This document shows positions 19,984-62,070 of a stretch of DNA of 64,000 nucleotides, piece after piece. The position numbers and the translations under genes are program-made. Under the pieces are notes generated by a model. The model did no database searches. It worked only from the letters and a program-made list of their open reading frames with translations, and was not told the DNA's origin. Every line of letters starts with the position of its first letter. Within the stretch, counting starts at the first letter, position 1. Source of the stretch: Bryoerythrophyllum caledonicum (lineage: Eukaryota; Streptophyta; Bryopsida; Pottiales; Pottiaceae); assembly GCA_963971425.1 (NCBI GenBank), contig OZ020515.1:22192637-22256636 (forward strand), written 5' to 3'.

Positions 19984-21745
19984 TCATTGAATTTTCTTCA
20001 TTTCCTCGAAGTCCGGCGCCTGGATGATATTCTTCTTCATCAACGTTTCTGTTCTGAACGTTGCGTCGTCCTTGATAAAGCTCCACCATAAGTATGCAAT
20101 GGGAAGAGTCACAGCATGCCACAGCGCATGTGCGTCAAAAATCCCCCACAGAGGTGGAAAATCGAAGATCTCCAAGAGCGAGGCAAGCGCAGCTCCGAGC
20201 ACTACAGTCCACAGTTTGAATCGCGCTGGGTGACTAGTCACAAACCCCCATGTTGCCCATATAAAAAGCTGGGCCACGACTAACACCGCGCACACAATCA
20301 TATTCAAATCTGCAGTTTCGTCACCAGGAATTAGAACTAGCTCCCAGGCATCTTCTTTATGGATCAGCACAAAATTATAGAACGCATATTGAAGACAAAG
20401 CTTACCATAGTCAAACTTGTAAAGGTTGAGATACAGGATATGGGTCGAGATGAAGGCGATTATGGGAGCTGCCACCATCACCCGAGGCGCCTCAGCCCGC
20501 AAGTTTCCCGTTCGAATGATGGCCAGCATCAAAGAGAACCCCAGCAACGCAATCGCTGATGAATAGTCGACCATCTCAGTGAACGTCATGTCTCTGAAAT
20601 GACAGACCAATTTCACATGTCAAATCACAAAAGAGCATCCGACATTTGAAGAAATGCCAAATTATCCAGTCCAGGTCCATATACGGTTCACCGATCAACA
20701 AAATACTGGTAGTAGAGCAGTAACAAGAAATTACTCTACAAAAATTCTTGAAACAGCAGAATTGGGTGCTTGCTCACCGAGAGTGGAAGACGGTGCTCCA
20801 GATCCAACTGTTCATGGACAGGAGGCCATAAATGGTCCAGAGCCCCACATACTCGTAATAGGGGCCCTTGCGGCGGGAAGGCAGCTTATAGTACACGAGC
20901 ACCAGAAACGAGGAGAGTCCTTGAAAGTGCACCAGCAGGTTCAACACGGAGAACGCCACAGACGCTGGTTCCTAAAATCACACCATCACACAACAACAAT
21001 TAGTCGTTCGCCAGTATTCCTTCACCGAATGCTACAATGGAACATCAGATGCTAAAGCATTGGGACATATGATATACCTGCAGGCTGAAGGAGCGGACCA
21101 GTGGCCATCTGCCGTGATACTTGACTGGAGCCTCGAGATTTGCCTGTCGACCGAGCTCCTCACGAACCATACAGTGGTAGCGGCACTCGCTGATGCAATC
21201 CCACTTCTTCCAACGCAGGTATAACGGCTCCTCCAGGAACTTCTCGTGGGGAGAATTCAGTGCCTTCTTAGGGAGAATGTTGCCCTCTAAATCAACATTC
21301 ACTGGGAAGTTGCAGCTGTTGTAGCACTGGCCATCTACACATCCTGTCTGCTCACAGCCTCGTACACATGCCCTACAGCGCCAACATCAAATTAATCACA
21401 TCACACGAGTGCAAACAAAAGGATGAACTCGTCCATTAGCATCTACATGCACACGGTCGCTACATTGCCAAACTTTAAACTGGCCGACCCCAGCTTCACA
21501 AAACTGAACCAGTTCGTAAGATGTAAAATTTCTGGGACTCAAAATGCACACCATGTGTCCACGCAACAAAGTGCATCAAAACACTTGCCCATGGAAACTA
21601 AAAATTTCACATACAGAAAAGGGGGGTTAACGAAGTACCTGTAACCAGGTCGCTCGTCGCCATCGCTGCCTTCGCACACAAGCACAAGCGAACCCACCAG
21701 AGCTACCAACAGGAAGCTCCGCCAAAACACCTTCCCCCCACTCAT
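19984..21745 (-). CDS. PGAP3: GPI-anchor phospholipase PGAP3/Per1-like
   Basis: Five exons (21745-21639, 21372-21078, 20971-20778, 20593-20406, 20309-19984) splice to 1110 nt, 369 residues. It opens with a signal peptide (hydrophobic FLLVALVGSLVLVC), then a cysteine-rich lumenal part (CVRGCEQTGCVDGQCYNSC), then about seven membrane segments. Conserved family residues are visible: WSTVFHSRDMTFTE and DAHALWHA with its two histidines, as in the CREST hydrolase superfamily. The enzyme removes the sn-2 acyl chain from GPI anchors during lipid remodelling in the secretory pathway. An in-frame ATG at 21818-21820 could add 25 residues; I chose 21745 because it gives a standard signal peptide. Confidence 0.95.
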
Positions 21746-29619: not shown

Positions 29620-30605
29620 ACTAGAAGACTCCCGGTCCCGGGACCGATGAACCTTTCCCTAACAAAAGTAAGTAGCCGGAGAAACCACTCAAGTGGTGAC
29701 CGCATGCGCAATGGGGCCCCATCGACATCACTACTCTCACCCTAGTGTTTAATTCTAGCAACTTAAAACAACATCCCACCAACCGATGAGGTAAATCAAT
29801 ACATAACATATAACAAAGACTCAACCGGAAGACTCTTCCAATTGAGACGTATAGAGATTGGTACTACGTCTGGAAGTACCAACATGGTCAAGAGAATCCC
29901 CCGAGAGGTTGGATGTCTCAACCGGGAGGTCTACCGGTGGAGTGGCGGTATCCACCGGAAAGTTGGGTGTATCTATAGATACACGCGGAGTCTCCTTAAG
30001 CTCAATCAATATGGCTACAGAAGATTCCACCATGGACTCTGGGGTTGAGGAAGGGAGGTCTACCGGTTCCTTTCTGGTAGGGAGGTTTCTTTTTTTCTTT
30101 CGTAGACCTTCACACCTCATTTCTTTGAGGGTGGGAAATCTACCCGACTCATCAGTAGAGGTGCTGAATATAGGTGTCTCATACATCTATCAACATAATA
30201 ACAACACAAAGGCACATATAGTTGTAACTAGGAGAGGACTTTGGAGACAAGGATTTAGAAAGAGGTTCTTCCCGGTTGACTGGAAAGACTGGGAAAAAGA
30301 TAAGAATTGTGGGCAAGACCTAAAATGACAGGAGGAGGGAGACAACTCAAAATAACAACTTGCCACAAGGCTAGGGCAATCGACAACAACTACACATGTA
30401 AACAACACAATAAGGTCTAGATGAAGTCCCCCGGGGGACTTTTTCTCTAAACCGGGGAGGATGTTACCGGGGAGTCACCCCGGTAGAAAAGAGAGGAAAA
30501 GACTCACAAACAAGAAATTCGCACAAACGAAAGAAATCCAACATGGGCAAGAGTCACGTTTGTTGTTGCACCCGCAACCTCCTTCCTTTGTCTCTTTTAT
30601 CTTCT
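29620..30605 (-). repeat. 1-kb repeat, copy 1 (inverted partner 56450-57610)
   Basis: The reverse complement of this block matches 56450-57610 over most of its length. The match includes GTCGATGGGGCCCCATTG, CTCCCCGGT and a GGTCTTGCCCACA segment. It contains the proline/valine/aspartate-repeat frame listed separately. The two copies differ by many substitutions and small indels, so the duplication is not recent. Confidence 0.85.
29821..30186 (-). CDS. hypothetical PVD-repeat protein, copy 1
   Basis: A 121-residue frame with a polybasic patch (LRKKKRNL) followed by repeats of the form TPPVDLPVETS. It aligns with the frame at 57004-57420 from STDESG to the shared end EESSG, with conserved VESSVAILIELKET. 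Conservation of the frame in two diverged copies suggests past coding function, probably a transposon accessory or gag segment. The opposite strand is also open over much of both copies, so the coding strand is not certain. I do not recognise the family. Confidence 0.45.
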   Translation of the reverse strand: MYETPIFSTSTDESGRFPTLKEMRCEGLRKKKRNLPTRKEPVDLPSSTPESMVESSVAILIELKETPRVSIDTPNFPVDTATPPVDLPVETSNLSGDSLDHVGTSRRSTNLYTSQLEESSG

Positions 30606-31248
30606 CGCTTTGGCCACTAATCTCCTCTTCTTCCACAAATCCTAAAATTCTCCACCACCTTTTTCAAACCCTAGCTTGCGCTCCCTCCTCCAACAAATCT
30701 AGAAAGTGTGCCCCTCTTCCTCCAAACCCTAGCTTGCGCTACCTCCTCTTCAAACCTCCTTTTCTTGAAACTGTCGTGCACAACCGCATCGTGCCAAGAT
30801 AACATCGTACTAATCAGGTGAGAACGCACAGTCAGAGACAACTCGGAAGTAACGGTGACATAACCACCACACCATTACCTTTATCAAACAATAATACTAT
30901 ACACATTTACACACTTTCAGCAATCCAGACTTAGGGAAAAGAAATAAATGGCCCATAACCTCGTACACCAAAAAGTAGTAAGCGGTCTCCAAGTACCCCT
31001 TTACTCGCCCCCTTGGCCCGTGCTGAAGCCCCTTTCACACCGGTGAACCACACAGTTTATATGTAAACTGAACGATAATCGGGAATGAAAACCTCTCAGA
31101 ACCATAGAACCAATGTGATCCACATGAAAAGACGCTAAAAGATTTAACAAACAAAGGGTAGGCCGGGTGCAAGTAGAGCCCCATCGTTAATCGCCTGTAA
31201 CATATTTTTAATGCTAGACTCTGTCTACTCAGACCCTCAACCTGCTAA
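30606..31248. other. downstream flank of gypsy element, 3' LTR not resolved
   Basis: No gene seen. The gypsy 3' LTR should start in this interval on the - strand, but I could not find sequence here that repeats upstream of 41150. The LTR limits remain undetermined. Confidence 0.4.
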
Positions 31249-31626
31249 TCACTCAGGACAAGACCATCGACCCACTGGTACCTCCAAAAGAGGTGGAGTT
31301 AAGCATTCTAAATGTCACCCCATATAACATAAATCACAAATAACCATAGTGGCTGCCCGTTTGGCACTACCACACAGCCGACAACGTAATCCAGCAGAGA
31401 TGTGAGAGATACCAGGGTGCACTGTTTCATCAATGTGTGGCAAGTGGCAAGGCGCACAATTACGTGTATGATCCTTCCACATCTTACTATCACGACCCTC
31501 CAACACTAACTCCCCTGAGTCCTTCACCTCACGAACTCTCAAGATTATCCTTCCTGCTGTCACATCCAAAGTGGTGGACACTACTTGCTGCAAATACACA
31601 TAGTCTCTAGGCGTGAAATGCCGCAC
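31249..31626 (-). pseudogene. gypsy C-terminal domain with PHD finger
   Basis: The frame 31626-31318 has a beta-rich opening (RIILRVREVKDSGEL), then NCAPCHLPH, then RCRLCGSAKRAATMVICDLC. After a TGA at 31315-31317 it continues HLECLTPPL, then GRWSCPE and a second TGA at 31249-31251. The spacing Cys-x2-Cys, Cys-x2-Cys, His-x2-Cys, Cys-x2-(stop) is the C4HC3 plan of a PHD finger, with seven of eight ligands present. PHD fingers bind histone H3 tails. In chromoviruses a chromodomain occupies this position, so a targeting role is a reasonable inference. Confidence 0.85.
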
Positions 31627-32480
31627 CTACGGTCGATAACCACCTCCCCGTATTGTAGCATAGCGCAATGTATCCCGATGTTGAGCAATGGAGAGGTTCT
31701 CCAATGCCATAGGCATCACCCTTTTGAATAACTCTACACATTGCTCACACACTTGAGTCCATGTGTCTGGATTGTCCATGTTAGCCAACACAATGTCACC
31801 ATCTGCTTGAGTGGCCTTTGGTAAAATCGGGTGCTTTCGAAACAATAGATAGTAAGGTGAAACAAATGCCAAGGATGCCTATTTGCTGAACCGATAGCCC
31901 ATTGCTATCCATGGTAGTTGCAAATCTCAATCATGGTGATGTCCTTTCTTCAAGCTATACTTCCAGAGCCCCCTCTTGACAATTTGTACTATGCGCTCCG
32001 CCAATCCATCTGCTTTGGGGTGATCCCTCGAAGTAGTGCGATGATCAATCATCGTTTGCTCACACAACGTCTGAAACCCACCCAAAAATTCTCTACCTTG
32101 GTTTGTGAGTACCTCTGTTGGAGCTCCAAAGCGACTCAGAATACGGTCAAGAAACAAATAAGTGGCCCCCTCACTAAATTTATTAGGCAATGCCACTAAC
32201 TCTATCCATTTCGAGAAATGCTCGATGATTACCAATACATACTTGTTGTGTCGAGGTGTCACTGGCAATGGTCCTGCAAAATCCAAGCTTCATCTATATC
32301 CTGATTCCTAAGCCCATAATTGATAAAGGTTGTAACTGTGGCATTGGAGCGTTAAAAGACGCTCGTACCCGGTCACACACCATACACCTTGCCACCAAAG
32401 CTTGCACTTGGGATTGCATGCCACGCCACCAATAGTGAATCTGAAGTAGACTGTAAGTCATCCGCATTCCAAAGTGTCGA
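31627..32480 (-). pseudogene. gypsy integrase
   Basis: The zinc-binding domain is seen around 32480-32370 (RHFGMRMTY, QIHYWWRG, ARCMVC). The catalytic core at 32286-31927 has MDFAGPLP, then TNQGREF where TDQG is expected, then ADGLAERIVQ with the catalytic Glu. The second catalytic Asp is therefore Asn, which should abolish strand transfer. 31872-31627 continues as the C-terminal region (SPYYLLFRKHP). Several stops interrupt the chain. Confidence 0.9.
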
Positions 32481-32623
32481 AGGTCCTCCTATTTGTCTTT
32501 AATCAGTTTCACTCTTTCTATTGAAGCTGGTACTACCTTCTTAGTACCATCTGGCCACAGTCTCACTAGGTGAGTCCTCTCCTACACAAACCTCTTAGCT
32601 TGTTGTAGAATCCTATCTCTCTT

Positions 32624-33220
32624 CTAATGAGACCATGAAGCCAGTGTTTCTCCATCCTTCAAGAACTTCATAACATTCGTGTCTTCATGGATATCTCTGG
32701 CGCCCCCAGACTCATCACCTCCATCCTCATCTACAGTGGCCACAGTAGCTTCCCCGACGGTGTCTCCATTCAATGCCAATATTCCTAGAAAACCCGAACA
32801 ATGCCAACCTGGCAACGGGACGGTTTCACCCTTAGTATGCCACCTAGCACCTGTATCATCCTCTCGGTTTGGAATTGGATTGCGGCTAAGGCCATCAGCA
32901 TCGATGTTTATCAATCTTGTCCAATGAACCACCTTAAAGTCATACTCCATCAACATCAAGGCCCACCGTGCTAGTTTTCTTGTCAATTTGTCAGACTCCA
33001 TCAACCATTTCAAAGGCTGATGATCTGTGACTAACAGAAATTCATTACCATAAAAATAACACCGAAAATGAGCAATTGGCCATATTGCAGCCAAACATTC
33101 TCCCTCATACGAGCTATACTGAGCCTCAGCGTTGTTGTTGGACCGGCTGGCATACGCAATCACAAATTCTTTGCCATCATCATCCATTTGCGTCAATACT
33201 GCACCAATCCCCAACGAGCT
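32624..33220 (-). pseudogene. gypsy RNase H
   Basis: LGIGAVLTQ, AYASRS, EGECLAAIWPIAHFRCYF, VTDHQPLKWLM and NIDADGLSRNP are the standard gypsy RNase H landmarks. The domain is cut from the RT frame by a TAG at 33221-33223, directly after the LHID that holds the first catalytic Asp. An acidic linker of about 60 residues follows to 32624. Confidence 0.92.
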
Positions 33221-34735
33221 CTAATCTATGTGTAGCTGGTACGTCCTTCCTGCTATAGGCCTCCGAAGTATTGGTGTTGATGCCAAACGGTCTTTCAACT
33301 GTTGAAAGGCCGTCTCTTGCTCATCTCCCCAGATCCAAGGTTGATCATTCTTTGTCAACATGGTTAATGGCTTGGCAATAGCACTGAAAGTCTTGACAGA
33401 CTTTCTATAATAGTTACACAACCCCAGAAATGCTCTCAACCTACTAATATCTCGCCGTCTAGGAATAGACATCACTACTTCCACTTTGCTAGCTACCACA
33501 CCTAATCCACTTGGATAAATCATGTAGCCTAAATATTCAATGCGATCAAAGTAGAATTTGCACTTACCAGGGTGCAGTTTTAATCCATGAAGCCTCAATC
33601 TAGCAAAAACCTCGATTAAGTGTAGTCTATGTTGCTTTCGATTCCTACTAAAGACAATGATGTCATCAATATAGCATCTCACAAAATCCAACCCCGAGAA
33701 TACTCTGTCCATAACCCTTTGAAATTCTGCTGGAGTATTCTTCAATCCAAACGGTAGAAACTTCCATTGAAACAACCGGTCCTTCCCATCTCTGTCAATG
33801 CCTCAGAACGCGGTTTTCTCCTTGTCTTCCTCTCTCAATCCAATCTGGTGGTATCTAGAGCGTAAATCCAACGTACTAAATACCTTGGTATGCCCAATGG
33901 CCTCAAAGTTCTCCTCCGGAGTTGGCATGGCATAATGGTCTGACTTAGCGAATTTATTAACTCTCCTATAGTCACCACACATCATTTTCTCAGTCCAATT
34001 ACCATATATGTCCTTCTTGAATGGCATAACCGTTGCTGATGCATATTCACAATCTGGAGGAGCCAACTCCACCAACCCTGCAGCCATCAATTCTTCTCTG
34101 CGAGCACGAATCATCATTTGCTCGATGTCGCTATACTTGTATAGCTTTCGATAAATTGGTATTTCATCGGTTGAGTTAATACGCACTTCTTGCCCCTTCA
34201 ACACTCCCTAATCATGTATACTGAAAGCAAAACAATCTAGATACTCCTTCAGGAACTCATGTTCCTCTACCTCCACTACTCCATCCGCCAAGCCTACTCT
34301 TGGTTTCCAAGTGTCCTTAGTTACCACCTTTTTTGGTTCATTTGGAGCAGGATTTTCCACCCTTGGTTGCTATTGAATCTCCTGTGAAGGAGACTCACCT
34401 CCTTCCTCCTCAATAACGCTCCTAAGTCCTTCCAACTGACCAAGTTTGTCAATTTCTTCCATGTGAAGAGTTGTGTCTTCTTCCAAGAAGATCTTCTCCA
34501 CAACCTCCTCCAAATCTAACATTTGATGAGCCAATCTGCTTCCTTTACTCCAGTTCTCCCCTCCATAGTGAAGATCTGTTGTTGTGGAAGTCGCAAAAAT
34601 ATTTACGGTATCCCATATGTTCCATGGATGAGGTGCAGAGGCCCTCTCGCCCCCAACCACCTTGCTTGTTACCCTGACAGAGGCAAGTGGTTCTCCTGCC
34701 GTCCGCAACTCGTAATAACCCATGTAACTCGTCAA
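33221..34735 (-). pseudogene. gypsy reverse transcriptase
   Basis: 34735-34370 is an acidic linker after the methyltransferase. 34204-33803 carries the RT fingers and palm start (GNWTEKMMCGDYRRVN, TLDLRSRYHQI). 33775-33221 carries FLPFGLKNTPAEFQ and the catalytic CYIDDIIVFS. It then runs through the thumb (KCKFYFDRIEYLGYMI) into the RNase H connection. A TGA at 33803-33805 breaks the frame between the two halves, before GIDRDGKDR. Catalytic aspartates are retained. Confidence 0.93.
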
Positions 34736-34753
34736 ACTAGAAGCTAAACGCTT

Positions 34754-35418
34754 CTATTCAGCAACGACTAATGAAACAATCCAAGTGAGGCAATTTAAAT
34801 CCATTGCCTGACCAAGTAGAAACCGTCTCTGTGGTTCTGAAATTCCATGCACATTGGTGGTGCCAGTGGGAAAGCCCATGGTACTCTCCCTCTCATTTGC
34901 ATTGGGCTCTACCATCTCTTGAGACAATGAATCCCAAATAAGCCCAGGTCCATTATCCTTGAAAGCATAAGACCGTGCGAAACTAACCAACGTGGGTAAG
35001 GCTCTACGTGGTTCCCCTTTGCCGTTAACCACCGCTAATGGTACCTGGTCATCGTGATACACGCGCCGTGGTGTCCTGTGAAGATCTAAAATGTCACTCA
35101 CATACACATCTGGGCGTTTAATGCGACCCACCTCGGACTGTAGCAACTCTACTGGTGCCAGGTTTGTCCACCACAAGCGTGGTCTATGTGCCCTAGACCC
35201 TACTGCAGCCGCATCAATTAACACTGGCAAACCCAGAGTCTGATGGATTCCATGCATACTCTCGAGTGTCCTGGACCTCGAACTGCTCATCACGGGCACA
35301 TTCTCTACAATATAACCAAGCGGTTGCTTCTGAGAAGTCTGAAGCAACGGAAGCACTCGAATCATGTCAAAGAATCTGGAAGAACGGGAATCCTTTAACC
35401 CATTCTGATTGCCTGCCA
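34754..35418 (-). pseudogene. retrotransposon C5-DNA methyltransferase, C-terminal part
   Basis: Downstream of the insertion, the frame starts with NGLKDSRSSRFFDMI, the segment that normally follows motif IV. GYIVENVPV (motif VI, catalytic Glu codon at 35303-35305) comes next, then AHRPRLWWTNL (motif VIII) and EPQRRFLLGQAMDL (motif X region), ending at TAG. The AHRPR..W form is closer to DNMT3/DRM-like enzymes than to DNMT1 in my judgement; a tree would be needed. The first ~13 residues of this open frame come from the transposon. Confidence 0.92.
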
Positions 35419-37437
35419 AAACAACGACGCTAGGATGTGAGCAGTGAGCGGTGAGCACTGAGCAGTGAGCAGTGAGGAGGGAGGATAAAAATGGACTTGG
35501 ATATTCTAATTATAGGAATTTTCTATAAATTGTATTTGGAATTTTCTAAAAAAAGTAAAATTTTGCAACCTGTTACCATGGTTTACAAATGTCTTCTGTG
35601 ATTTTTTACTTACAAATGGGCTAAGAAATTGCTTCACATAAAAAATAAATGTTGAATTTTAGGGACAAACCTACTCAAACTTTAATATGGAGTTGACTAT
35701 TTCTCGTCATTAAATGGATGAATAAGTTTGGATGATACATTTCATGGATGAACAGAGTTTATGGATGAATGAAGTTTAGGGCATCCATTCAAAATCTCAT
35801 CTAGTTTTACGAAAATCTCTCTATGAGCGACATGAAATTTATTGGGAAACAAAAATTCTGTTAGTTTACAGTGGTTCAAAATTCATGCCGCATTAAAAAA
35901 TATACCTTTCAAGAGTGAAGATGAATCACTGAACTACAAGATTTTAAAGAAGTCAAAAGAGGTTCTTCTGTGCCAAAGAGCCTACTAGGCCCATTTTAAT
36001 TTTATTCTTTTGTCTAATTTATTTGATTTTTTTTCCCATTCCCAACAACGGGTAGAACATGTTTCAAAAATGTTTTCCTCAACAAATTCTACTATTTCTA
36101 CAAGTGAAAATTGTTGAACTTCACAAGTTTTTTGTGAAGCCCAAAAGGATTCCTCGGTACCAAGGAGCCATTTTGGCCCTCCAAAGTTTTGTGTAGTTTT
36201 CAAAGTTAAACTACAAAAGAGGCATAACTTGCCATAACTACTATGACCAAAATAAGAAAAACTTAGAGATTACTATTGCGGAGTAGGAGCTGTACTTCAT
36301 TGAAACTAAGACTTGGTGCATGTATTTACTTGTCGTCTTCTAGGTTTGCGTTGCACAAGAATCTGTATACATGTAACATAATACAAGTGTTTGCAATTCA
36401 CCCTCGGTTTGCATTGGCCTAATGCTCCACTGCAATGAAGATTATAGTGGAAGCAAGAATTTTAGTGTTCAAAATTACATAAAATTTTGGAGTGCCAAAT
36501 GGGCACTTTGGTACCGAGGTGCCATTTTTCCCCTCATTCAAACTATGTAAAGTTATAGTGGAAGCAAGAATTTTAGTGTTCAAATCTTCATGGAGTGCCA
36601 AATGGGCATTTTGGTACCAAGGTGCCATTTTTCCCCTCACTCAAATTGTAGTGGAAGCAAGAATTGTAAAACTATGTAAAATTGTAGTGAAAGCAAAAAA
36701 TTTTGTATTCAAATATACGGAGAAGTTTGAAGTGCCAAATAAGCAATTTGAATAACCCTTAAGGAGAATTTTTTATAATGGGCGGTAATTAATTTTATTT
36801 TATTTTATTATATTTTTATACTCTCTTTTTGGTTTTCCTTGGTTTCGCCCTCAGGGCACTCTTCGGTATTGAAGAGCCCCTCGGCTTGTTTTTTTTTTTA
36901 ATTTTTTTTTGTTTCGCCGTCATGACCCTCTTCGGTAGCAAGGAACCCTTTGACTGGTTTTTTTGTTTTTTTTGTTTTAAATTTTTTTAAATTAATTAAT
37001 TAATTATTGGTTTTGCCCTCATGACCCTGCTTGGTACCGAGAAGCCCTTCGACTGGTTTTTTTGTTTTTTTTTGGTTTCGCCCTCAAGGCCCTCCTCGGT
37101 ACCGAGGAGCCTCTCAGCTGATTTTTTTTTTTAATAAATTTTTTTACTAATATTTTAGAAGTTGCTATATTTTTTCAAACTATAAGTTGAGCAATCATTC
37201 ATCTACATTCATCTATCTACATTCATCCATCTATCTACATTCATCCAAATATCCTCCAAATAGTTTATTTCCGAGTTTTTTAATCAAACTTTCTCCCATT
37301 TTGATCTTTTTTCATATCACATAAATAAGTCACAATGTAAAGTTGTTTCTTGTTAATCACCCCAAATCTATGGTTATAGGGTTCCCAACTGAAAAAAATA
37401 GATTGCTTACTACTCACTGCTCACATTCTAGCATTCC
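35419..37437. mobile_element. Mutator-like non-autonomous insertion in the DNMT
   Basis: A 2019-bp AT-rich block interrupts the methyltransferase. TGCCTGCCA occurs immediately outside on both sides (35410-35418 and 37438-37446), a 9-bp duplication as expected for Mutator-type elements. Removing the block and one copy restores continuity of the methyltransferase frame. Inverted repeats lie just inside the ends: 35429-35448 and 37413-37432 match at 19 of 20 positions. The outermost 5-10 bases do not match, which is unusual. There is no transposase. Confidence 0.78.
36841..37118 (+). repeat. CTCGGTACCGAG palindromic repeat modules
   Basis: Four ~45-bp modules (about 36841-36892, 36911-36958, 37012-37055, 37074-37118) read GGTTTCGCCCTC, then CCTC-TCGGTACCGAG-GAGCC, separated by T-rich spacers. 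Related GGTACCRAGG units occur near 36150, 36508 and 36610. They form short hairpins and lie inside the insertion at 35419-37437. Confidence 0.8.
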
Positions 37438-37750
37438 TGCCTGCCATAGATATGCCTTGGCAAAGTCATCCTGCAATGACAAGATCCACATGATCCACAC
37501 GATGAATGTCATCATCTAACAGCAAGGAAATATCGCCCACAAGTGTAGAGAAAGAAGTTTTGATGGCACTAGTGACCAACAATTCTGGAAATTGTGTCCT
37601 CAGTCTCCGTGTGTGACGTTTGGCCACATGCCTTGCTGCTTCATCCACATCCACGTAAATGTAGCGCTTAACTTTGATCCCAACTTATAAAACAATTGCC
37701 AACCTTGTGCCAATTCCTCCAAAGAGCTCCAACAATACAATGCCATCTGT
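37438..37750 (-). pseudogene. retrotransposon C5-DNA methyltransferase, N-terminal part
   Basis: Motif I (LLELFGGIGT, about 37745-37710) binds S-adenosylmethionine. After a stop, YIYVDVDEAARHVA matches motif II and VDHVDLVIAG leads to motif IV. The catalytic Cys codon is retained at 37460-37462 in an LCQG context; families usually read PCQ preceded by Gly-Trp or Gly-Gly. Here a TGA stands at 37466-37468, where I infer an original TGG. The frame then runs into the inserted transposon. These enzymes methylate cytosine at C5. Confidence 0.92.
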
Positions 37751-38620
37751 TGGTGCCTTCCAATGGATGGTGGCAATGTCTAATGGAGGCCCTAGGTCTT
37801 GGTCAGTTCCAAGCTCCTGTTGCATCTGTGGTTGTATAGAATGTTGCCATGCCTCTTCCTCTACTAACTCTACGGCCTCCCTCAACTCGGTGGTGTTACT
37901 CCACGTCGCCTGAATCCCAGGTTGGTATCCTTCCTCCTCTCCACCACTCGTGTTGCCCATATAGACATCCACCTTGTCTGAAGTGTGGTGAGCAATGGAA
38001 GGATCCTCAAAACCTGTCTGAAACCATGAAGGCTTCATATTCAAACATCCAGAGAAGGCAAACACGTCAGCAAAGTTACCAGTAAGAACTCGAACAAATC
38101 GAGCTGGCAGCTGAGCCTTCCGCCCATCTCCTACTTGCCATCCTGGTCTATAGCTTGCTGACTCATCCCAAAAATCCAAAGTGAATCCCATAGGGTATAG
38201 CACCGCCGAGCCCATCAAGACATCATACGACTTGGCCTCCGTGACTATTGCCTTCACCTTCATGGAACTTGCATCTGCTACATCACTTTGATTGAGTTGT
38301 AACACCAACTCAACACTTGTGATCCCTTTAGCGTGCTTTGTACCCCCCATGGATGTGCTAATGGTCCAGGGACACTTCTCCAAAGTATCCCCAGTTAAAC
38401 CCAACCTTTCAATAGCGGACGCTCCCAACATCAACGGTTGAGCTCCTAAATCCATAAGCACACGTTGAGGTACAAAAACCTTCCCCTTAGGCCCAACGAG
38501 TTGAAAAATGCATTGGAAATTATCAACCACTACCACACCAGGGGTAATGGATGATCTCTCAATCGCAGGTCTAGCGGCCATTGTCTTCACACGCATGGCT
38601 GCTAAAAGTAGCCCCTCCAC
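37750..38620 (-). pseudogene. gypsy aspartic protease and linker
   Basis: VLMDLGAQPLMLGAS near residue 55 is the retropepsin active-site region, with Leu where D-S-G or D-T-G is usual. SYDVLMGSAVLYPMG further on matches the second conserved block. About 120 residues of acidic linker (VELVEEEAWQH) lead without a stop into the methyltransferase. The protease would process the polyprotein. 38630-39205 upstream holds two short linker frames separated by stops. Confidence 0.8.
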
Positions 38621-39280
38621 GTTGTCACTCTAGCTCTCCTCTGACTTGATTTTCTCTGTCTTCAACACATTAAGCTCCGTGGAGTTATCCAACTCATACA
38701 TTGAGGCTATAGTCTTGAATACCTCTGCCACACTGAAGCCACCTTGTGACAACATCTTAGCAGAAAATAAAGAGGCTTCCCACACGGAAGTTGTTGCCTC
38801 CATAAGTGCTCCAGAACCTCCTGTGAGTCCTCCAGCTCGTGGTGAGGCTCGTGTGGGTGTTGCCACTGGTCATGGTGGAGGCACCATCGACGACGTGGGC
38901 ACCATCTCTTCTAATGTGAAGGATTGAGGCAACCTTACTTGTCGATTATCCTTTCCATGGTGAGGATCCAAAGTTGGACTAGCTCCACGTGGAACATCCT
39001 TGGAACTTGGAGTATGACTCCGTGTGAGGGCATAGGCCTCCTGTGTGCCATCCCTGATGGCAAGTGCCATGCCACTCAACATGAAGTCTTCAAACTCATC
39101 ATCCACGGAACTAAAACCGCCCCCAGCATGGAAACTGGGAGTAACATGAGGTTTGTTACCTACCACAGTAGTATTGGCACTCATTGCTTTCATTTTGGCC
39201 TCCAACTCTGCAAATTAGGCTTTCCAGCTCTTCTTCTCCCCTCCAGTGGTCTTGGACTCCTTCTCCTTGCCTCCTTTAGC

Positions 39281-41129
39281 TCATTTGTTCCCCGTACGCT
39301 TCAACTCTGGATGGAGCTTCCAGCAACTGGCCTCTGCATACCATTTGGCACCGCAACCTGAGCAAAAACCTCTAGTCTGAGGTGTGGAAGTCTTACCTTC
39401 CTTGCAATTCTTCCTCTGATGTTCTGGCTTCGTACATTTGAAGCACAAGGCACCACAGTCTGCAGTATACGAAGGGATAGCCACCTTGGCCACCTTAACC
39501 TTCTCTGGGACCTTCTCTTCACGTTTGAAAAATCTCATGGCCGCCTTCTCTTCCAGTATATTTATCTCAATCCGCTCTGAGGTCTCAAAAACAAACCGTA
39601 GTGTCGTGGGTACTCCCAATCGCAACGCCTCATTGCGAACCAAGGATTTTAACTCCTTGTCCAGGATACTGTACCAATGTTGCACTGCCCGTTGTTCTGT
39701 AACTCCGTAAGTGGCTGAGATTAGTCTCTTTAATCTTGCATGAGCCTCTCTCAGAGACTCGTCACCTCCACATGTGAAGGAACAAAGGGCCTTCATCTTA
39801 TCCGCCGTCTATCCTTGGTAGTCTCTATGGAGTTGCACGAAGAATCCCACGGTGGGATTGAATGGAGGTGGATGATTTACCAGTACCTCTGGCTACTCCA
39901 CATCCTCTATTGTGCTCGTGCCTTCGTCTATCTTCCCCTTGGACAAGAGTGGGGGTGTCATCCTCGGTGCTCCACCGAACACGTCCACGTAGTTCGGTGC
40001 GTAGAAGTCTCTCAAGGCCATAATTTTGGTGAAATGAGCCGCCTCGAACTCTCCGTAGTCCGCCACTGGAGCTCCCTCCATACACCAAACAATGCCTCAC
40101 ACCATGTACGGATTAAAATTGAGGTTACGAGACTTCTGAAGTTCACACCACATGGTGAACTCCCTCTTGAAGTCATCGACTTTGTTGGTGCCCGTGGCCC
40201 CCGAAAATCTTCGTACCCCTCTTTCTCCACCTCCATATGGTGAAGCCATCTCCTCCCAATCAAAGTATGATTGGTAGGGTTTTATGGGTAAAACTGGGAC
40301 TTGAACACTCGCCTGTGGCCTTTCAAGAAATTCCTCCTCTTCTACTAGTGGCAAAGCACTGTCCTTTGCCTCTTCTGGTTGACCACAAATTTCTGTCAAC
40401 ATTCTTTTACTAGCATCTACTGAGAAGGGGTGTTTCTACGTGTAAAACCGAGACCCTTCTAGTTATCCGGATTGCTACTTGGGTGCTCTACTCGAACAAT
40501 CGCCAGGCCTCATGGGTTCCTCTCATCTCTGGAGCATAAATCGTAGGTGTCACTACCTAATCCAGCAACTCTAAGGTAAGAATATCCCACACACTCAAGG
40601 CACGCTCTTGCCACGTATTAACCTCCCACTGCCAGGTAGTGTGGAATAAGAACCCTTCACTCTCGAACTCGGTGAAAATGAGGGAGAAGGTGAGTAGTTG
40701 GATGCCTGAAGAGAAATCCTCTATCTTTACACCATACCTTGATCCAGAATTTGGTAGGACCACGGCCGTACCTTCAATCACCAAATCCTCCACCCTGACT
40801 TGCCCACGAGCGCGGCATAGAGGTGCTGGAATTCCCTCCTTCACCTGAAATGAGCGGATCTTCTGCACCCTACCTAGTGAAGTCCAATACTTCACTGATT
40901 CCGCACTCAATACCTTCGTGCCTGGTTTACACAAGTTCTAGGGCCTCGTGCGAGATTTGGCTATAAGAGAAAATTCAAAGTCCCCGTGGCTACTACTTGT
41001 TGTGGAGGGAGAGCCTCTCACTTGCAAGTTCTGCAAGCAGGTGATTAAGGTGTCCAACACCTCTCCATTAATTTCCACTTTAGGCCCACTAGCCTTCTCA
41101 GGTTTCTGAGACTTACCTCTTCCCTCCAT
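39281..41129 (-). pseudogene. gypsy Gag with N-terminal extension
   Basis: The pieces are 41129-40938, 40934-40557, 40402-40097, 40081-39893 and 39796-39281, separated by stops or frame changes. The last piece contains the helical gag core (TYGVTEQRAVQHWYSILDKE) and CFKCTKPEHQRKNC, a CCHC knuckle. A second Cys cluster follows (CSGCGAKWYAEASCW), an atypical knuckle. Gag forms the particle and packages RNA. The N-terminal ~250 residues, including an SRYGVKIEDFSSGIQLL segment, match nothing I know and may be family-specific. Confidence 0.8.
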
Positions 41130-41399
41130 AGTCCATAATTTTGAATTCCAAATACCCTTGAATCACCTTATACCATGTCACTAATGTTCCCACAAGCTTC
41201 CAAGCGTCCACTTTATCCTCCTCCAAGCGCTATGAGTATGTAATCACCTTTGAACCTCCTCATAATCAACCTTGATACTCGGGTAATCTCATACGCAGAG
41301 CCTCTTTAAACTTCATACACGTATGGCTACCGAAGATATGGTCCCGATGCGGATACAGAGAAAACCGAATACCTTACGATGTGGGTACCCTTGCCATAT

Positions 41400-42310
41400 A
41401 CGAATAAGAGCTGTGGGGAACGGGCTTCAACATCCAGGTATCGATACTTTAACAGGGTATCAACATATCGGCAGGGTTTCAATACATTAGTAGGATAACA
41501 AAGCGCATGCGGGTATGAGTATCAAACCGGGTATAAAAAAAGAACCGGATATCAGCCCTAACCCGAGTATAAGCACACTCAACCGGGTATCAGCAGAACC
41601 AAGGTATCAACTCGAACCAAGGTATCACTCGAACCAGGGTATCAAAACTAATGCTAGGTAACCACACCTATGTAGATTATCAATCCCGACTGCCGGTCAT
41701 CAACCCGACAGCCGTTCATCAAACCGCACGTTAGGTTATCAACCCGCATTCCAGGTTATCAATCCGACTGCCGGTCATCAACCCGACATCCCGGATATCA
41801 AACTGTGTCCAGCCTATCAACCTCTCACTCGGGTATAGGTATCAGATACCGGATATCAGGTGGAAGCCCAGGTACCAGGCTTACGGTGGGTATCAATTTC
41901 AAAATCCGGGTGTTATTAGCCAACCAGGGTACCAGCGGCGGACATGATATCAATAGACACCGGGTATCAGACCCACGAGGGTATCAAGCCCAAACCAGGG
42001 TATTAAACCAACATCAAGGTATCAATCCATGCTAGGGTATCAATTGCGGTCCAGGTATCAATATGATAACCGGGTATCGACAACACAATCAGGGTATCCG
42101 CTCTCACTCCCGGGTATACACCCACTGCTGGGCATCAACCAACTGCCTGGGTGTCACTAACAGAACCGGGTACCAACTAAAGAATTGGGTACCAGTAGAG
42201 AACCGGGTATCAGTAGTCAACCTGGGTACCCGCTAAACAGGAGGATATAATACACGGGCATGGTTTCAGAAACGGGCAGGGATCAGTAGCAAGTTGGGTA
42301 TATGTGCCAT
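41400..42310 (+). repeat. degenerate GGTATCA-rich array
   Basis: Dozens of units built on (A/C)CCGGGTATCA, spaced roughly 20-30 bp apart but not in strict phase, fill about 900 bp. Variants include GGTACCA, GGTTATCAA and CCGGTCATCAACCCG. The same motif reappears at 44040-44110 and 55440-55530 inside the LTR-like pair. No coding frame is apparent. Confidence 0.8.
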
Positions 42311-43689
42311 GCGGGTATCAGTGCCGTTCCTGTGGACGCTGTGCACACTCCCGCGTTCTGTCTGTGCACACCCTCGTTGTACACACTCTCATGTCTGTCT
42401 AGGTGCACACTCCCGCTGAACACACTCCCGCGTTTGCGCTTCTCCCTCGCTGCCTCACACACTCGGTCCTCACACACTCGCCCCAGGAGCGTTCCCACCT
42501 GCTACTGCCGGCTTCACGTGAATAACTGAACAGAGTCCCTGGTGGATAAAGCCCTTTCAAGTAAGATCCTCGTCGTACACAATGTACGCCGTGTTTACAA
42601 ACATTTGCAGCGGGATCACCACCGAAAACCGCACATTGGATCCCCAATCTCCGAAATGAACTCCCCTGCAAGAAGCAAAAACAACACTTCCTCGTCACGT
42701 GCGTACCGCTAGCGCCTCAGCTTCGTCGCGACCACGTGCGTCAGCGGCATCAACTCCTCCGTCTCGCAAACACGGCTGCTATGAATGGGCGGTCTCGGCA
42801 CAACACTTCCTCCTCAAGTACTACCGAAAATCTTCCTTCTACGATGAAGCCGCCAGCTCCCGCCCTCCTCGTTCGTAAACGGCCACGCCAACACAACACG
42901 CCTCCATTGCAATCAGTCCGCTCGACACTTCCATCACAGATCGCTCGCGCTCCTGCGCGCGCATAGATCGCCGTGCCCACACCACTCCTGCAAGCACCAG
43001 TTCGACCGCTTCTACAAGCGACAACAACACTCTCGAACGAGACAGACACTGCCGCACGTAGCGGATCTACAGATCCTCACACAAAGTATGGATAAAGACG
43101 AAGGTCAACGGACTATCATCCACTTGGATTGGCTTAGAGTTGAAATCCGCCACTCATTCTCACCCTTATCCAATGGATTTCATCCACTTAGCTAAGCACA
43201 CTTGAGGTTTTGCAACAAAATTTCAGCACTAAAACATTGTTCAAAAACACCCTAAACACAACATTTTGAAGGTTTTAAGTATCACTAAATCACTAGGAAT
43301 ACACTCATATCTTAGCGATGATCTTTTTCAAGTAATAAAGAAGTAGAAAATACTCATAAACTACACATAGTCAAGCCAATGCCATTCTTAAAGAATGGTC
43401 GCATAATAACAATGAAGTTAAAGAAGTGCACGCACGCACGCACTCTCTCACTCCATCACGTGGGAGACTCAACTTGAGAAAGATGAGTCTCCCCACACTA
43501 CACGTGGAGGTCATTTGGACTCCAAGTCCCAAATGAGGTGTCAAAAGACACCACCAAGGCCCTAAAAGTCAAAAGACTCTAATACTAACTCTAATTAATA
43601 ACTAAAGCTAGCATCTAGGTCTTCCTTGAGCCGTTTAACCTCCTAGTTGGTTTATAACGCGTAAACCAACCTCCACAAACCCTCCAACG
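42311..43689. other. low-complexity region, no gene seen
   Basis: A CACACTCCCGC-type degenerate repeat occupies 42338-42484. 42500-43060 is moderately GC-rich with open frames on both strands but no motifs. A (GCAC)n run lies at 43425-43440. This may be internal or LTR sequence of the element whose LTR-like part starts at 44505. Confidence 0.4.
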
Positions 43690-44505
43690 CGTCGAACCTG
43701 ACAAAACCCTAGTTGTAACTCCTTGTCTTCTTCTTGAAACCCCAACTCCCAAAAGATATAGAACTAAACTTGTTGAGAAAGAAGAACTAGGAGCAAGAGG
43801 GAAAGAGAAAAGAGAGAGAGAGAGAGTTAAAAACTATGGGGGAATATTTGGGAGAGAGAGAGTTGTGGCGGTAGGGAGGGAGAGAGCTGAGAGAAAATAA
43901 AAAAATAGGGCGGTAGGGTTCGGGGTCGGCGAGGACGTATTGAGTTGGCGGAGTTGGCAGGGGCTGACGGGGGGATCGCCTCCCTCCCGACCAGTTGGCC
44001 CCCCGGTCAGGGCCCGCGGTCGGCTAAGGCCCGGCCCTGGTAGCCAGGACCCTGGCCCTGTTGGTTTCCGGGTAGGTATCCGGGACAATACCCGGTCCTG
44101 CCCGGGTATCAGCCATATTTTAATTTTTAATTTTTAATTTTCTAATAATTCTCTTATTATTTTCTTTTCTTCTATTTTTTCTTTCTACCACTACTACTAA
44201 CTACCTTCTAAACTAAACTAGTTAATTTAGATTTAAGTGGTGATTTTAGACTTACGTCCCAGGATCTCTCCCAGGAGTCTTTTGAAATTGTTTCCTAGGA
44301 CCTAAATCAATGATTTTAAGACCCGGTTTTATCACCACTATAAATCTAATTAACTACTTAAGCATTTTCCTATTTTCTCTATCCGCTATCTAATCTAATT
44401 TCACACAATACTAACTACTTTTCTAGTTAACTAATACTAAAAACCCTATTTTAACTATTTTTTTGGTAGAGGCGACCAAGTGGGAGTTTTATACTCCCTA
44501 ACCTC
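43690..44505 (-). repeat. LTR-like sequence, copy B (inverted partner 54979-55760)
   Basis: The reverse complement matches 54979-55760: an AAACTCCCACTTGG-like start, ACTTAAGCATTTTCC-type AT-rich body, CCGGGTATC units, a CT-rich tract and GGAGTTGGGGTTT. (GA)n runs at 43810-43862 correspond to the CT tract of the partner. It is probably the LTR of one retroelement family present twice in opposite orientation. Confidence 0.75.
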
Positions 44506-51800: not shown

Positions 51801-52946
51801 CACCACTTCGTATTGATGTAGGTGTTGTTGAAGGCCCTATGGTTGCATCTTGCACCTTCTGCTTCACCATCCTCCGTCTTCTCTTTCTTGGAATCACTAT
51901 CATCCGTGGTATTTTGTTTAGAAGATTCGTCCACGAGAACCAACGAAGGCGTCTCACTACTCCCAGTTGGACTCATCTCCAAATTATAACCAACACTTGA
52001 GCTATCTTCAACAAACACCACATCACGACTCTGAATGATATTCTTTGTCTCAACACACATGAGGCAATATGCCTTGGTGCCCTCGCAATAATCAAGAAAC
52101 AAACATTTTGTGCCTTCCAAATCAGGCTTATCCCTCTTTGCACCCGGCATCATTGCATATGCAATGCATCAAAATCACGCATCTGTGCAATGCATGGCTT
52201 GCGGCGGTTCCAAGCATTTTGTGGTGTGATGGTGACAAGCGCCCTAGTCGGACACCGATTGCGGATATACACAACAATGATCACTACTTCTGCCCAAAAA
52301 ACAAGCTTGAGCCGTCAAGCATGGATCGTGCTCCTTGCCATCTCCACAATGGTACGCTTAGCTCGCTTGGCCACTCCATTTTACTCGGGCATATACGGTG
52401 TTGATGGTTGCCTCTTGATGCCGTGTTGCTTCAAGTAGCCTCGAAATGCCTTAGAGATGAACTCTCGACCATTGTCTATCCAAAACACCTTGATCTTCTA
52501 CTCCGATTGCTTCTCCGCAAGCGCCTTGAACTCCTTGAACTTCTCAAGGCACTCCCCTTTTGTCTTCAACGTGTAGAACCATACCTTCCTTGAAAAGTTA
52601 TCAAGAAAGGTTACAAAGTACCTTGCACCGCCAGTGGACATGGTCCTCATGGGGCCGCACACATCTGAATGTATAGTCTCCAAAGGCTTTGTGGCACGAG
52701 TCTTTGGAGACTATACATCTGAATGTATAGTCTCCAAAGGCTTTGTGGCCCTCCATCCTTTGGAAATGGTGCCCTATGTTGCTTGCCTTGCACACACCAT
52801 TCACAAAATGACATAGATGACTCATCTTTGCCAATGATCATGCCACTTACCATGCTTTGAAGAAAATGCACACTTCCCACATTCAAATGACCAAGTCGAC
52901 AATGCCAAAGCTCTGTGGCGCCAATCTTGCTTGATGATTCTGCCAA
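51800..52946 (-). pseudogene. copia-2 integrase
   Basis: 52946-52647 has ELWHCRLGHLN and CEWCVQGKQH (zinc-binding pre-integrase). 52683-52498 has METIHSDVCGP and FLDNFSRKVWFY. After a TAG the frame continues WIDNGREFISKAF, then PYMPE, TAA, NGVAKRAKRTI, where I would expect a Gln codon. 52153-51800 is the C-terminal region (GTKCLFLDYCEGTKAY). A local direct and inverted duplication at 52661-52749 disrupts the start of the core. Confidence 0.85.
52661..52749 (-). repeat. direct plus inverted duplication in copia-2 integrase
   Basis: A 35-bp direct duplication (52661-52695 and 52715-52749) brackets an inverted copy of part of the same sequence. 52671-52685 and 52702-52716 are exact reverse complements of 15 bp. 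Confidence 0.9.
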
Positions 52947-53890
52947 ATTGGCCGCATCCGCTTATATACCTTGGCGAAGGCCACTTGGTACAAGTTGTCT
53001 TCATGAGGAGCAACCGCAAGTACATCTCCATTAAATGCCTTCATTGAACACCAATCTATATTGAATTGCACCTTCATACCTCTTGACACAAGTTTACTCA
53101 CCAAGAGCAAGTCCGCTTGCAACTTAAGCACATGGAGGACGTCCTTGATTCTCATCCTCTTCAAACGCCCCCTTACGAATACTTCGACAACAATGGCATC
53201 GACTATAATGGCATTGACAAGACTATCATCACCTAAGTGCACGTTGCGTAATAGAATTACCTCATATGCATGAAATGCTGCCCGATGCAGTGTCATGTGT
53301 TTTTTGACGCCCGAATCCAAAATCCACTTACAAATGGATTTGGAATGAGGTCGATCTTGAGTTGCAAATGCATAGTCATCGTCCTCCTTGGCATGGTTGG
53401 CATTCTCCTTCTCTTTTGCTTGATTGGCGTTCTCCCGCTTCTCTATTTTCAGCTTAAAACAATTTCGTACAAAATGGCCCGGTTTGCCACAATTGTAGCT
53501 AACCTTGGGCTCGCCACGTGAGGATTAGTTGCCCCCTTTGTTTTGCCTAGATACGAAGGCCACATCAGTGCCATGCGCCTCCTTCTCCATGCGATAAGAC
53601 ATTTCGTGCATCATCTGTACAACTACAAACTCTATGGTGAGGTCTTTCATATGCAACGTCTCCAAGGCGGTGATCAAGTGCTCAAACGAGGGCGGCAAGC
53701 TCTCAAGTAAGGTCATCACCACATCTTCATCTTTGATGGGTACCTCCAAGCAATTGAGTTGATTCGCAAGTGCCTTAACTTGGTTGATATGGGTCAACAA
53801 GTCATCACCTTTTTGCATCTTGATTGTGAAGAACTTGCAACAAATGAAGAGGATGTTGGACAAGCTCTTTGTTTCGTGAATGTTGCACAA
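52883..53890 (-). pseudogene. copia-2 Gag, zinc knuckle and protease
   Basis: 53890-53525 is a UBN2-type gag core (LTHINQVKALANQL, LLESLPPSFEHL). A knuckle near 53490 reads SYNCGKPGHFVRNC, with Ser in place of the first Cys. The protease site near 53320 reads WILDSGVKKHMT, the D-S-G retained. Frame changes separate gag from the knuckle. Confidence 0.87.
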
Positions 53891-61727: not shown

Positions 61728-62070
61728 CTGAACCCAAAATATGAGTACGTAGGCTGAGATGAGGAACTTGTACAGCTTAGAGAAATTGCAAATATACATA
61801 TAAAAGTGTTCTACACCCACAATCCTGAAATGCTCGATGGAAGAATGAGCACTATATAGATGATGGCACATAAGTATGAATGCACATATTAGGCACCTGG
61901 GACAGTAGGTGGAGTATTCCTAGAAGTCTGAGCTACACCAGCGACTTGAGCAGTCTGTGCGAGGTTTCTGTCACTGACATCCTTCGATTGTGTTGATCCA
62001 GTTACACCTGAATACCAGTAATGAAGTGGTAAAAATACGGTCTACATAGAGTGAACTGTCCTGAGAACAA

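What the first reader, a model, noticed from the sequence alone, without database searches (positions are those of the whole stretch)
31249..41129. Ty3/gypsy element carrying both a DNA methyltransferase and a PHD finger
Seen: gypsy protease, C5-MTase motifs I, II, IV, VI, VIII and X, RT, RNase H, integrase and a C4HC3 finger in one - strand order. Known: DNMTs in retrotransposons have, to my recollection, been reported in charophytes and dinoflagellates. Inference: such an element could methylate its own or target DNA and use the PHD finger to choose chromatin for integration, a self-contained epigenetic writer/reader package.
Basis: partly seen in the sequence, partly recalled or inferred. 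Interest (0 to 1): 0.92.

Follow-up and report, generated by a model that had tools for sequence, protein, structure and literature searches.

The report
Retrotransposon carrying methyltransferase and PHD finger
A decayed jumping gene here belongs to a large family, with many well-preserved copies in the same genome, whose members carry their own DNA-methylating enzyme and a protein finger of a kind that reads histone tails, so it may mark its own DNA and choose where to insert.

Summary
Confirmed and extended. The window holds a dead Ty3/gypsy-type element (30772-43703, minus strand, TSD GTTT). Its DNMT3-type methyltransferase (MT), between protease and RT, is split by a nested 2,019-bp insertion; a PHD finger ends the integrase. 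In the same unnamed 437-Mb genome, 10 of 10 copies chosen for long frames read PR-MT-RT-RH-IN-PHD, and 9 of 10 evenly sampled copies show the PHD. MT and PHD look to be under purifying selection. In 18 of 20 copies an in-frame UAG-CARYYA, a plant-virus-type readthrough signal, separates gag-PR-MT from RT-RH-IN-PHD. The ends are DIRS-like split repeats with 4-bp TSDs, despite a DDE integrase. MT-bearing relatives occur in Marchantia, Sphagnum, Closterium and Mesostigma; in Volvox and Chlamydomonas eustigma, where the PHD is also seen, the MT sits before the integrase. A gypsy DNMT3 element with DIRS-like repeats is published (KnitGypsy-Dnmt3, 2018); the PHD, the readthrough signal and the MT relocation did not turn up in the open papers searched. 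Function (cDNA methylation, unmodified-H3 reading) is inferred, not shown.

The parts
30772..43703 (-). whole element, TGTC...GACA termini (12,932 bp including the nested insertion), 'short' form B...A
43704..43707 (-). target site duplication GTTT, 5' side
30768..30771 (-). target site duplication GTTT, 3' side
43333..43703 (-). terminal repeat B (about 370 bp), 94.9% identical to B of own-genome copy L045
40491..41129 (-). place of upstream ORF0 (213 aa in family-1 copies L045 and L053); 41129 is the place of its ATG
34373..40509 (-). ORF1: gag (place of the first ATG of the frame 40249) - protease - MTase, interrupted by stops and by the nested insertion
39281..39808 (-). gag segment with a CCHC zinc knuckle (PF00098 E 0.03, below cut-off)
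38174..38509 (-). aspartyl protease
37438..37744 (-). DNMT3-type MTase, N-terminal part (motifs I to IV; motif IV damaged)
35419..37437 (.). nested insertion (2,019 bp, AT-rich, subterminal inverted repeats TGTGAGCAGTGAG), 9-bp TSD TGGCAGGCA at 37438-37446 and 35410-35418; MULE-like by TSD length only
34778..35418 (-). DNMT3-type MTase, C-terminal part (motifs VI, VIII, IX, X)
34370..34372 (-). UAG in the context CAA-UAG-CAACCA: conserved readthrough-type stop between MT and RT
33518..34039 (-). reverse transcriptase
32942..33253 (-). RNase H
31870..32529 (-). integrase (H2C2 zinc-binding plus DDE core; upper bound approximate; change of frame near 32300)
31243..31386 (-). PHD finger at the integrase C-terminus (C4HC3; last cysteine lost in this copy)
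30772..31005 (-). terminal repeat A (about 233 bp), preceded by a purine-rich tract in the relatives

Best explanation
The window holds a dead copy of a Ty3/gypsy-type retroelement with two captured chromatin domains. ORF1 encodes gag, protease and a DNMT3-type C5-cytosine MTase. ORF2 follows in the same frame after a UAG-CARYYA stop and encodes RT, RNase H and a DDE integrase that ends in a PHD finger. Shown here: architecture, conservation, repeat structure, TSDs and a signal of purifying selection. Inferred mechanism: (a) most ribosomes stop at the UAG, so the MTase is made and packaged in Gag-like amounts while RT and integrase come from occasional readthrough; (b) the RT yields a circular or 2-repeat DNA whose A-GC-B junction (palindrome GACAGCTGTC) is cut by the integrase next to CA, giving B...A-gc-B-A or B...A insertions with 4-bp TSDs; (c) the MTase methylates the cDNA before or at insertion; (d) the PHD, which resembles fingers that bind the unmodified H3 tail (K4me0), tethers the integrase to H3K4-unmethylated chromatin, in the place that a chromodomain takes in chromoviruses (recalled). 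I put (a) at about 0.7, (b) at about 0.5, (c) at about 0.5 and (d) at about 0.45.
For: Architecture in copies of the same genome: 10 of 10 chosen for long MT frames; MT/RT/RH in 10 of 10 and IN+PHD in 9 of 10 copies taken at about every 11th row of the MT list. Genome-wide spacing and the reverse test. Database proteins with MT and PHD in one polyprotein. MT is DNMT3-like: PDB profile best DNMT3A 3e-22, then 4onj 9e-13 (recalled as a tobacco DRM) and DRM2 8e-10, DNMT1 only about 0.8; model pLDDT 92, pTM 0.91, Foldseek best DNMT3A-DNMT3L 1.3e-21; catalytic Cys in 68 of 70 domains, motif VI Glu in 69 of 70. PHD: full C4HC3 pattern in 73 of 75 database and 15 of 19 own domains, no Trp at H-2 in any of these 88; best PDB sequence matches include CHD4, KMT2D, KDM5, MLL3, DPF3, WSTF, PHF12, ATXR5, UHRF1 and BAZ2 fingers. 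dN/dS medians MT 0.18 (47 of 136 pairs), RT 0.047 (105 of 171), IN 0.036 (106 of 153), PHD 0.086 (99 of 171), pairs with dS 0.05-1.5. UAG-CARYYA in 18 of 20 copies of two divergent families with different flanking codons. Split repeats with a palindromic junction, and a TSD in 9 of 9 copies with both ends found.
Against: No enzymatic, histone-binding or readthrough measurement was possible. The published assay found no de novo activity for the K. nitens gypsy DNMT3 (PMC5890265, passage). 2 of 11 MT-selected database proteins that run at least 100 aa past the integrase gave no PHD match (P0011, P0015), though P0011 ends in a Cys-rich stretch. None of the named streptophyte proteins shows the PHD; 11 of the 12 listed Marchantia and Sphagnum rows and the Closterium and Mesostigma rows end before or inside the integrase, so they do not test it. 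One own copy has a sense codon at the UAG (L061) and one lacks that region (L063); P0011, P0015, P0036, P0038 and P0039 read from MT to RT without a stop, so readthrough is not universal. 2 of 11 sampled unpaired PHD matches had no MT at the expected place (L080, L084). Whole-model confidence for the integrase C-terminal region plus PHD is low (pTM 0.37), although most PHD blocks score 81-88. MT dN/dS is higher than that of RT or IN; the one family-2 pair gave a PHD ratio of 0.87 at dS 0.03, and 17 cross-family pairs a PHD ratio of 0.25 at saturated dS.
Confidence: 0.65

Rival explanations
1. The MTase and/or the PHD belong to host genes or other elements that happened to insert into or beside an ordinary gypsy element.
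For: The window alone is ambiguous: the MTase is split by an insertion and the frames are broken.
Against: The same order and spacing recur in dozens of copies, within TSD-bounded elements and in the same open frames where these were examined, and in proteins of other species.
Confidence: 0.02
2. MT and PHD are passive cargo: captured once, kept by hitch-hiking, with no role in the element's cycle.
For: MT dN/dS (0.18) is higher than that of RT and IN; the K. nitens MT was inactive in a published assay (passage).
Against: Median dN/dS far below 1 for both; catalytic Cys and motif VI Glu kept in 68 and 69 of 70 MT domains; zinc ligands kept in 73 of 75 database PHDs.
Confidence: 0.12
3. The MTase acts on RNA, or serves the host by silencing new copies (self-restraint), rather than protecting or marking the cDNA for the element's benefit.
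For: Both ideas are raised for retrotransposon DNMTs in PMC5890265 (Discussion; the RNA idea there concerns the LINE elements). The window copy shows more C-to-T at CG and CHG than at CHH sites (11.7, 11.5 and 7.2%), as expected if copies become methylated and silenced.
Against: Profile and fold are DNMT3-like, with DNMT2 far behind in the profile search. The deamination pattern does not say which enzyme methylated.
Confidence: 0.25
4. The PHD is a structural or protein-protein zinc finger (for example for particle assembly or nuclear import) and does not read histones.
For: No binding data; two MT-bearing database proteins reach well past the integrase without a recognisable PHD.
Against: Close match to PHDs that include several solved with unmodified H3 (BAZ2A, ATXR5, UHRF1); it takes the place that a chromodomain takes in chromoviruses (recalled).
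Confidence: 0.3

Closest known systems
KnitGypsy-Dnmt3 of Klebsormidium nitens (de Mendoza et al. 2018, PMC5890265)
   Same: Dnmt3-type MTase in the coding region of a gypsy element; repeats described as those of a DIRS element with gypsy domains (Fig. 4 legend); purifying selection on the MTase.
   Different: The word PHD does not occur in that main text (figures and supplements not seen). Not mentioned in the parts I read: a MT|UAG|RT split, a palindromic A-gc-B junction with 4-bp TSDs, a second arrangement with the MT before the integrase.
SymbioDIRS-Dnmt3 of Symbiodinium (same paper)
   Same: Retroelement with a Dnmt3 MTase and A-coding-B-A-B split repeats.
   Different: It uses a tyrosine recombinase; here the integrase is of the DDE type with an H2C2 zinc-binding domain and 4-bp TSDs.
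Chromoviruses (Ty3/gypsy with a chromodomain at the integrase C-terminus; recalled)
   Same: A histone-reader-type module at the integrase C-terminus.
   Different: PHD instead of chromodomain; a MTase is also present; split terminal repeats.
RIRE2 of rice and type I readthrough viruses such as TMV (passages of PMC2754532)
   Same: Gypsy-type elements of rice are cited there as readthrough candidates; UAG-CARYYA is the TMV-type motif.
   Different: Here the stop lies after the MTase, so the MTase is on the Gag side. Where the stop lies in RIRE2 was not looked up.

Membership tests
Ty3/gypsy retrotransposon | PR-RT-RNase H-DDE integrase in that order | tested here: met
Ty3/gypsy retrotransposon | TG...CA termini with a short TSD made by a DDE integrase | tested here: met
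   TGTC...GACA and a 4-bp TSD in 9 of 9 copies with both ends found (of 10 looked at), and in the window
Ty3/gypsy retrotransposon | Two identical LTRs, one at each end | tested here: not met
   B at the 5' end, A-gc-B-A (or A alone) at the 3' end; so 'gypsy-type pol', not a standard LTR element
Ty3/gypsy retrotransposon | tRNA primer-binding site next to the 5' repeat | tested here: inconclusive
   no TGG directly after 5' B in 7 of 7 copies examined; tRNA genes not searched
KnitGypsy-Dnmt3 type | Dnmt3-type MTase in the coding region of a gypsy element | tested here: met
KnitGypsy-Dnmt3 type | DIRS-like repeat arrangement | tested here: met
   against the Fig. 4 legend; the figure itself was not seen
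KnitGypsy-Dnmt3 type | Common descent with the K. nitens elements | not testable with these tools
   no K. nitens sequence obtained
DIRS / tyrosine-recombinase retroelement | Tyrosine recombinase | tested here: not met
   DDE integrase (PF00665, PF17921) present; PF00589 not listed in the Pfam scans of the window pieces and of 14 database proteins
DIRS / tyrosine-recombinase retroelement | Split direct repeats | tested here: met
Chromovirus | Chromodomain at the integrase C-terminus | tested here: not met
   PHD found there; no chromodomain listed in the Pfam scans
DNMT3 family MTase | Best profile and fold match to DNMT3, unpermuted motif order I-IV-VI-VIII-X | tested here: met
DNMT3 family MTase | De novo CpG methylation activity | not testable with these tools
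   needs an assay
PHD finger | C4HC3 zinc ligands | tested here: met
   73 of 75 database and 15 of 19 own domains; the window's own copy has lost the last Cys
PHD finger | Histone H3 tail binding | not testable with these tools
   inferred from solved relatives
Type I stop-codon readthrough | UAG followed by CARYYA | tested here: met
   18 of 20 copies and the window
Type I stop-codon readthrough | Measured readthrough | not testable with these tools
   needs a reporter assay

The most novel reading that the evidence does not exclude
An ancient green-lineage class of retroelements carries a writer/reader pair. A DNMT3 made in Gag amounts by UAG readthrough methylates the element's own circular cDNA, and an integrase with an H3K4me0-type PHD (the chromatin state that DNMT3 enzymes themselves read through their ADD domain; recalled) cuts the palindromic circle junction and inserts it into matching chromatin. 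Kept since before or near the chlorophyte-streptophyte split, with the MTase relocated once within pol, this is a mode of self-marking integration intermediate between gypsy and DIRS elements.
Probability: 0.3. Interest if true: 0.88.

Novelty: new variant of a known kind. Interest (0 to 1): 0.74.

Why it matters
Transposons are usually the targets of DNA methylation. A widespread, recently active family that carries both a de novo-type methyltransferase and a histone-reader-type finger makes it directly testable whether an element can write and read chromatin to decide where and how it lives. Many long-open copies in one genome, plus MT-bearing relatives in Marchantia and MT+PHD relatives in Volvox, make experiments feasible in lab organisms. 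The DDE integrase with DIRS-like split repeats also raises an unsolved question of how such an element replicates.

Tried and rejected
Intron in the MTase: rejected. The 2,019-bp interruption has a perfect 9-bp TSD. In 17 of 20 own copies the MT domain is found in one unbroken reading of 939-942 nt (one of the 17, L067, has an in-frame stop); in the other 3 (L065, L070, L072) the match is split by a change of frame, not by an insertion of that size. Ordinary LTRs: first taken as such, then resolved as split repeats. The inverted repeat 29659-30564 / 56481-57591 was first suspected to be the element's LTR: rejected, because the element ends at 30772 and its terminal repeats lie elsewhere. Viral carriers: an IMG/VR scan with the MT profile gave 36 loci, in which tblastn with P0029 found no RT-IN relative and P0039 matched only around its MT; a scan with the RT-IN-PHD profile gave none. 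Klebsormidium relatives: none named in the third protein search. Single origin of the MT capture: trees agree with one clade of retro-MTs beside DNMT3A and one MT-before-integrase clade (holding the latter together is not rejected, p-AU 0.385), but plant host DNMT3s were not in the tree, so independent captures from close host genes are not excluded. On the RT-RH-IN tree all 60 MT/PHD rows group against 6 gypsy outgroups, but the rows were picked by MT or PHD similarity.


Full report
1. What is in the window. On the minus strand the window encodes a broken gypsy-type polyprotein. Pfam finds rve (1e-09), RNase H (1e-30) and RVT_1 (4e-22), and weak protease, C5-MTase and PHD signals below cut-off. 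Alignment to intact relatives covers gag, protease, both MTase halves, RT, RNase H, integrase and PHD in one order. An own-genome copy (L045) maps the landmarks. The element runs from 43703 to 30772 and is flanked by GTTT on both sides. The MTase is interrupted at 37437/35419 by a 2,019-bp insertion with a 9-bp TSD TGGCAGGCA and subterminal inverted repeats; by TSD length it may be a Mutator-like non-autonomous element.

2. Copies in the same genome. The window lies in G000, contig 2, of a 437-Mb assembly that is not named. PF00145 gave 123 scored matches of 1054 candidates. One (L037) matches the whole profile and looks like a host C5-MTase; the other 122 I treat as the retro-MT, 20 of them examined by sequence. 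Ten copies chosen for long MT frames have PR-MT-RT-RH-IN-PHD in 10 of 10, at similar spacing. Ten more, taken at about every 11th row of the list, have MT, RT and RH in 10 of 10 and IN and PHD in 9 of 10. The tenth (L074) follows family 2 to about 30 nt past the point where my reference stretch ends, then runs into foreign sequence to the end of the 4.7-kb stretch, so an integrase beyond it was not looked for.

3. Do MT and PHD co-occur? Searching the genome with an integrase-C-terminal plus PHD piece gave 150 scored of 2426 candidates. Of the 122 MT rows, 79 have such a match on the same strand within 20 kb downstream, 74 of them at 3.3-4.2 kb; none has one upstream on the same strand or on the opposite strand within 20 kb. 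From the other side, 76 of 150 PHD rows have a listed MT 3-6 kb upstream. Both lists are capped, so I fetched the expected MT place for 11 of the 74 unpaired PHD rows, evenly spaced: 9 have the MT there, one has RT sequence there instead, one has none. In database proteins found by MT similarity, 9 of the 11 that extend at least 100 aa past the integrase carry a PHD. In those found by integrase-PHD similarity 62 of 63 have it, but that search was scored on the PHD itself.

4. Expression layout. In 8 of 10 chosen and 10 of 10 sampled copies an in-frame TAG separates gag-PR-MT from RT-RH-IN-PHD. All 18 are followed by CAACCA (15) or CAATCA (3), which fits UAG-CARYYA. Chance for six such bases is 1 in 512 with equal base frequencies (my arithmetic); the copies within a family are not independent. 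The two families differ in the flanking codons, and only 2 of their MT pairs gave a synonymous distance at all, median 3.0, that is saturated. CARYYA after UAG is described as essential for TMV readthrough in PMC2754532 (passages). One copy has a sense codon there (L061), one lacks the region (L063), and database proteins P0011, P0015, P0036, P0038 and P0039 read straight through. The window's own stop at 34370-34372 has the motif. Consequence, inferred: the MTase sits on the Gag side. A further 213-codon ORF lies upstream in the two family-1 copies looked at (L045, L053) and overlaps the open frame of ORF1 by 19 nt in L045, upstream of ORF1's first ATG.

5. Ends and insertion. Each long-form copy is B - leader - coding - A - gc - B - A, with A about 233 bp (about 107 bp in family 2), B about 370 bp, and the internal junction reading GACAGCTGTC. 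Of the nine copies with both ends found seven are long form and two (L059, L061) are short form (B...A), like the window; all nine and the window have perfect 4-bp TSDs. For the tenth (L049) no 5' end was found in the stretch. The B or A repeats of one copy differ by 0 to a few bases, so these insertions look recent. Both forms are what one expects if a circle with one or two repeat units is opened at the A-gc-B junction, but short forms could also arise by recombination between the two A repeats; I cannot tell which. A purine-rich tract precedes A. No TGG primer-binding motif follows B directly in 7 of 7 copies.

6. What the captured domains are. MT: the PDB profile search puts DNMT3A and 3B first, then 4onj (recalled as a tobacco DRM) and DRM2, with DNMT1 at noise; the model of an own copy has pLDDT 92 and matches DNMT3A-DNMT3L best. 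Catalytic residues are kept in nearly all of 70 domains: 53 database and 17 own. PHD: its PDB neighbours include fingers of CHD4, KMT2D, KDM5, MLL3, DPF3, WSTF, ATXR5, UHRF1 and BAZ2, several solved with unmodified H3. The Trp two residues before the zinc-binding His, part of the H3K4me3 cage in ING, BPTF and TAF3 (recalled), is absent in 88 of 88 domains that fit the pattern. Hence the inference of an unmodified-H3 reader. DNMT3 enzymes' own ADD domain also reads H3K4me0 (recalled); pairing the two is my suggestion.

7. Selection and decay. Pairwise dN/dS medians are 0.18 (MT, 47 of 136 pairs), 0.047 (RT, 105 of 171), 0.036 (IN, 106 of 153) and 0.086 (PHD, 99 of 171) over pairs with dS 0.05-1.5; pairs are not independent and include decayed copies. 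The one family-2 PHD pair gives 0.87 at dS 0.03, too few changes to weigh. Against L045 the window copy shows C-to-T at 11.7% of CG, 11.5% of CHG and 7.2% of CHH sites, versus 4.4% transitions at A/T sites: it looks as if it was methylated in CG and CHG, with L045 standing in for the ancestor.

8. Spread and history. Proteins named as Marchantia polymorpha, Sphagnum fallax, Closterium and (by the identifier Mesvir1) Mesostigma viride carry the MT after the protease, before RT where RT is included. They end before or inside the integrase, so whether they have the PHD is open. Volvox reticuliferus (P0068) and Chlamydomonas eustigma (P0070) carry the MT before the integrase, and a PHD. On an RT-RH-IN tree of 66 rows all 60 MT/PHD rows form one group against 6 other gypsy elements, and the MT-before-integrase rows need 2 label changes with one clade not rejected. 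On the MT tree 57 retro-MTs group together (support 96) and the 38 MT-before-integrase rows are one clade (98); rows without RT were labelled by their neighbours, protease or integrase. Both are quick trees without bootstrap. Nineteen rows without MT in the same protein may be second ORFs behind a stop, as in this genome; that was not checked for them.

9. What is known. PMC5890265 (read: first part of the text with abstract, introduction and first results, the K. nitens section, the Discussion, and found passages) reports DNMTs in dinoflagellate LINE and DIRS elements and a gypsy-DNMT3 element with DIRS-like repeats in K. nitens. PMC12344493 (passages) says that some DNMT3 members are embedded in retrotransposons, as reported in streptophytes and dinoflagellates. 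The combination with a PHD on the integrase, the readthrough stop and the second arrangement did not turn up in ten searches of the open-licence library. Of the listed papers I opened four; subscription papers, supplements and figures were not seen. So the MTase capture is known; what looks new is the PHD partner, the layout, the spread and the counted co-occurrence.

10. Verdict. Its function remains an inference. New variant of a known kind.

Noticed in passing
window 29659-30564 and 56481-57591: An inverted pair of about 0.9-1.1 kb, 78-85% identical, just beyond the element's 3' end; not the element's terminal repeat.
   Followed up: partly
window 7729-11111 (+) and 52883-53524 (-): Ty1/copia-type remnants: CCHC knuckle and RVT_2 pieces; CCHC and Pol_BBD piece.
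   Followed up: partly
window 13254-13802, 19984-20619, 61054-61776 (-): Likely host gene exons: DEAD-box helicase, Per1-like, NIF-type phosphatase.
   Followed up: partly
window 44197-44498 and 54982-55285: Inverted repeat pair, 88% identical, about 300 bp; nature unknown.
   Followed up: no
L045 3417-4055, L053 3414-4052, window 41129-40491: Conserved 213-codon ORF upstream of gag, overlapping the open frame of ORF1 by 19 nt in another frame in L045: possible frameshift or separate protein.
   Followed up: partly
L002 3152-3670 (IMG/VR contig): A C5-MTase that groups with DNMT3A (support 98) rather than with the other viral-contig MTases on the MT tree.
   Followed up: no
P0028 residues 2122-2177; P0020 residues 701-735: A weak Tudor-type match (PF21743, E 0.004) after the PHD in P0028, and a G-patch (PF01585) between MT and integrase in P0020, members of the MT-before-integrase lineage; P0048 and P0084 also list a G-patch.
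   Followed up: no
window 36826-37143: Four copies of an 85-nt repeat (67-81% alike) inside the nested insertion.
   Followed up: no
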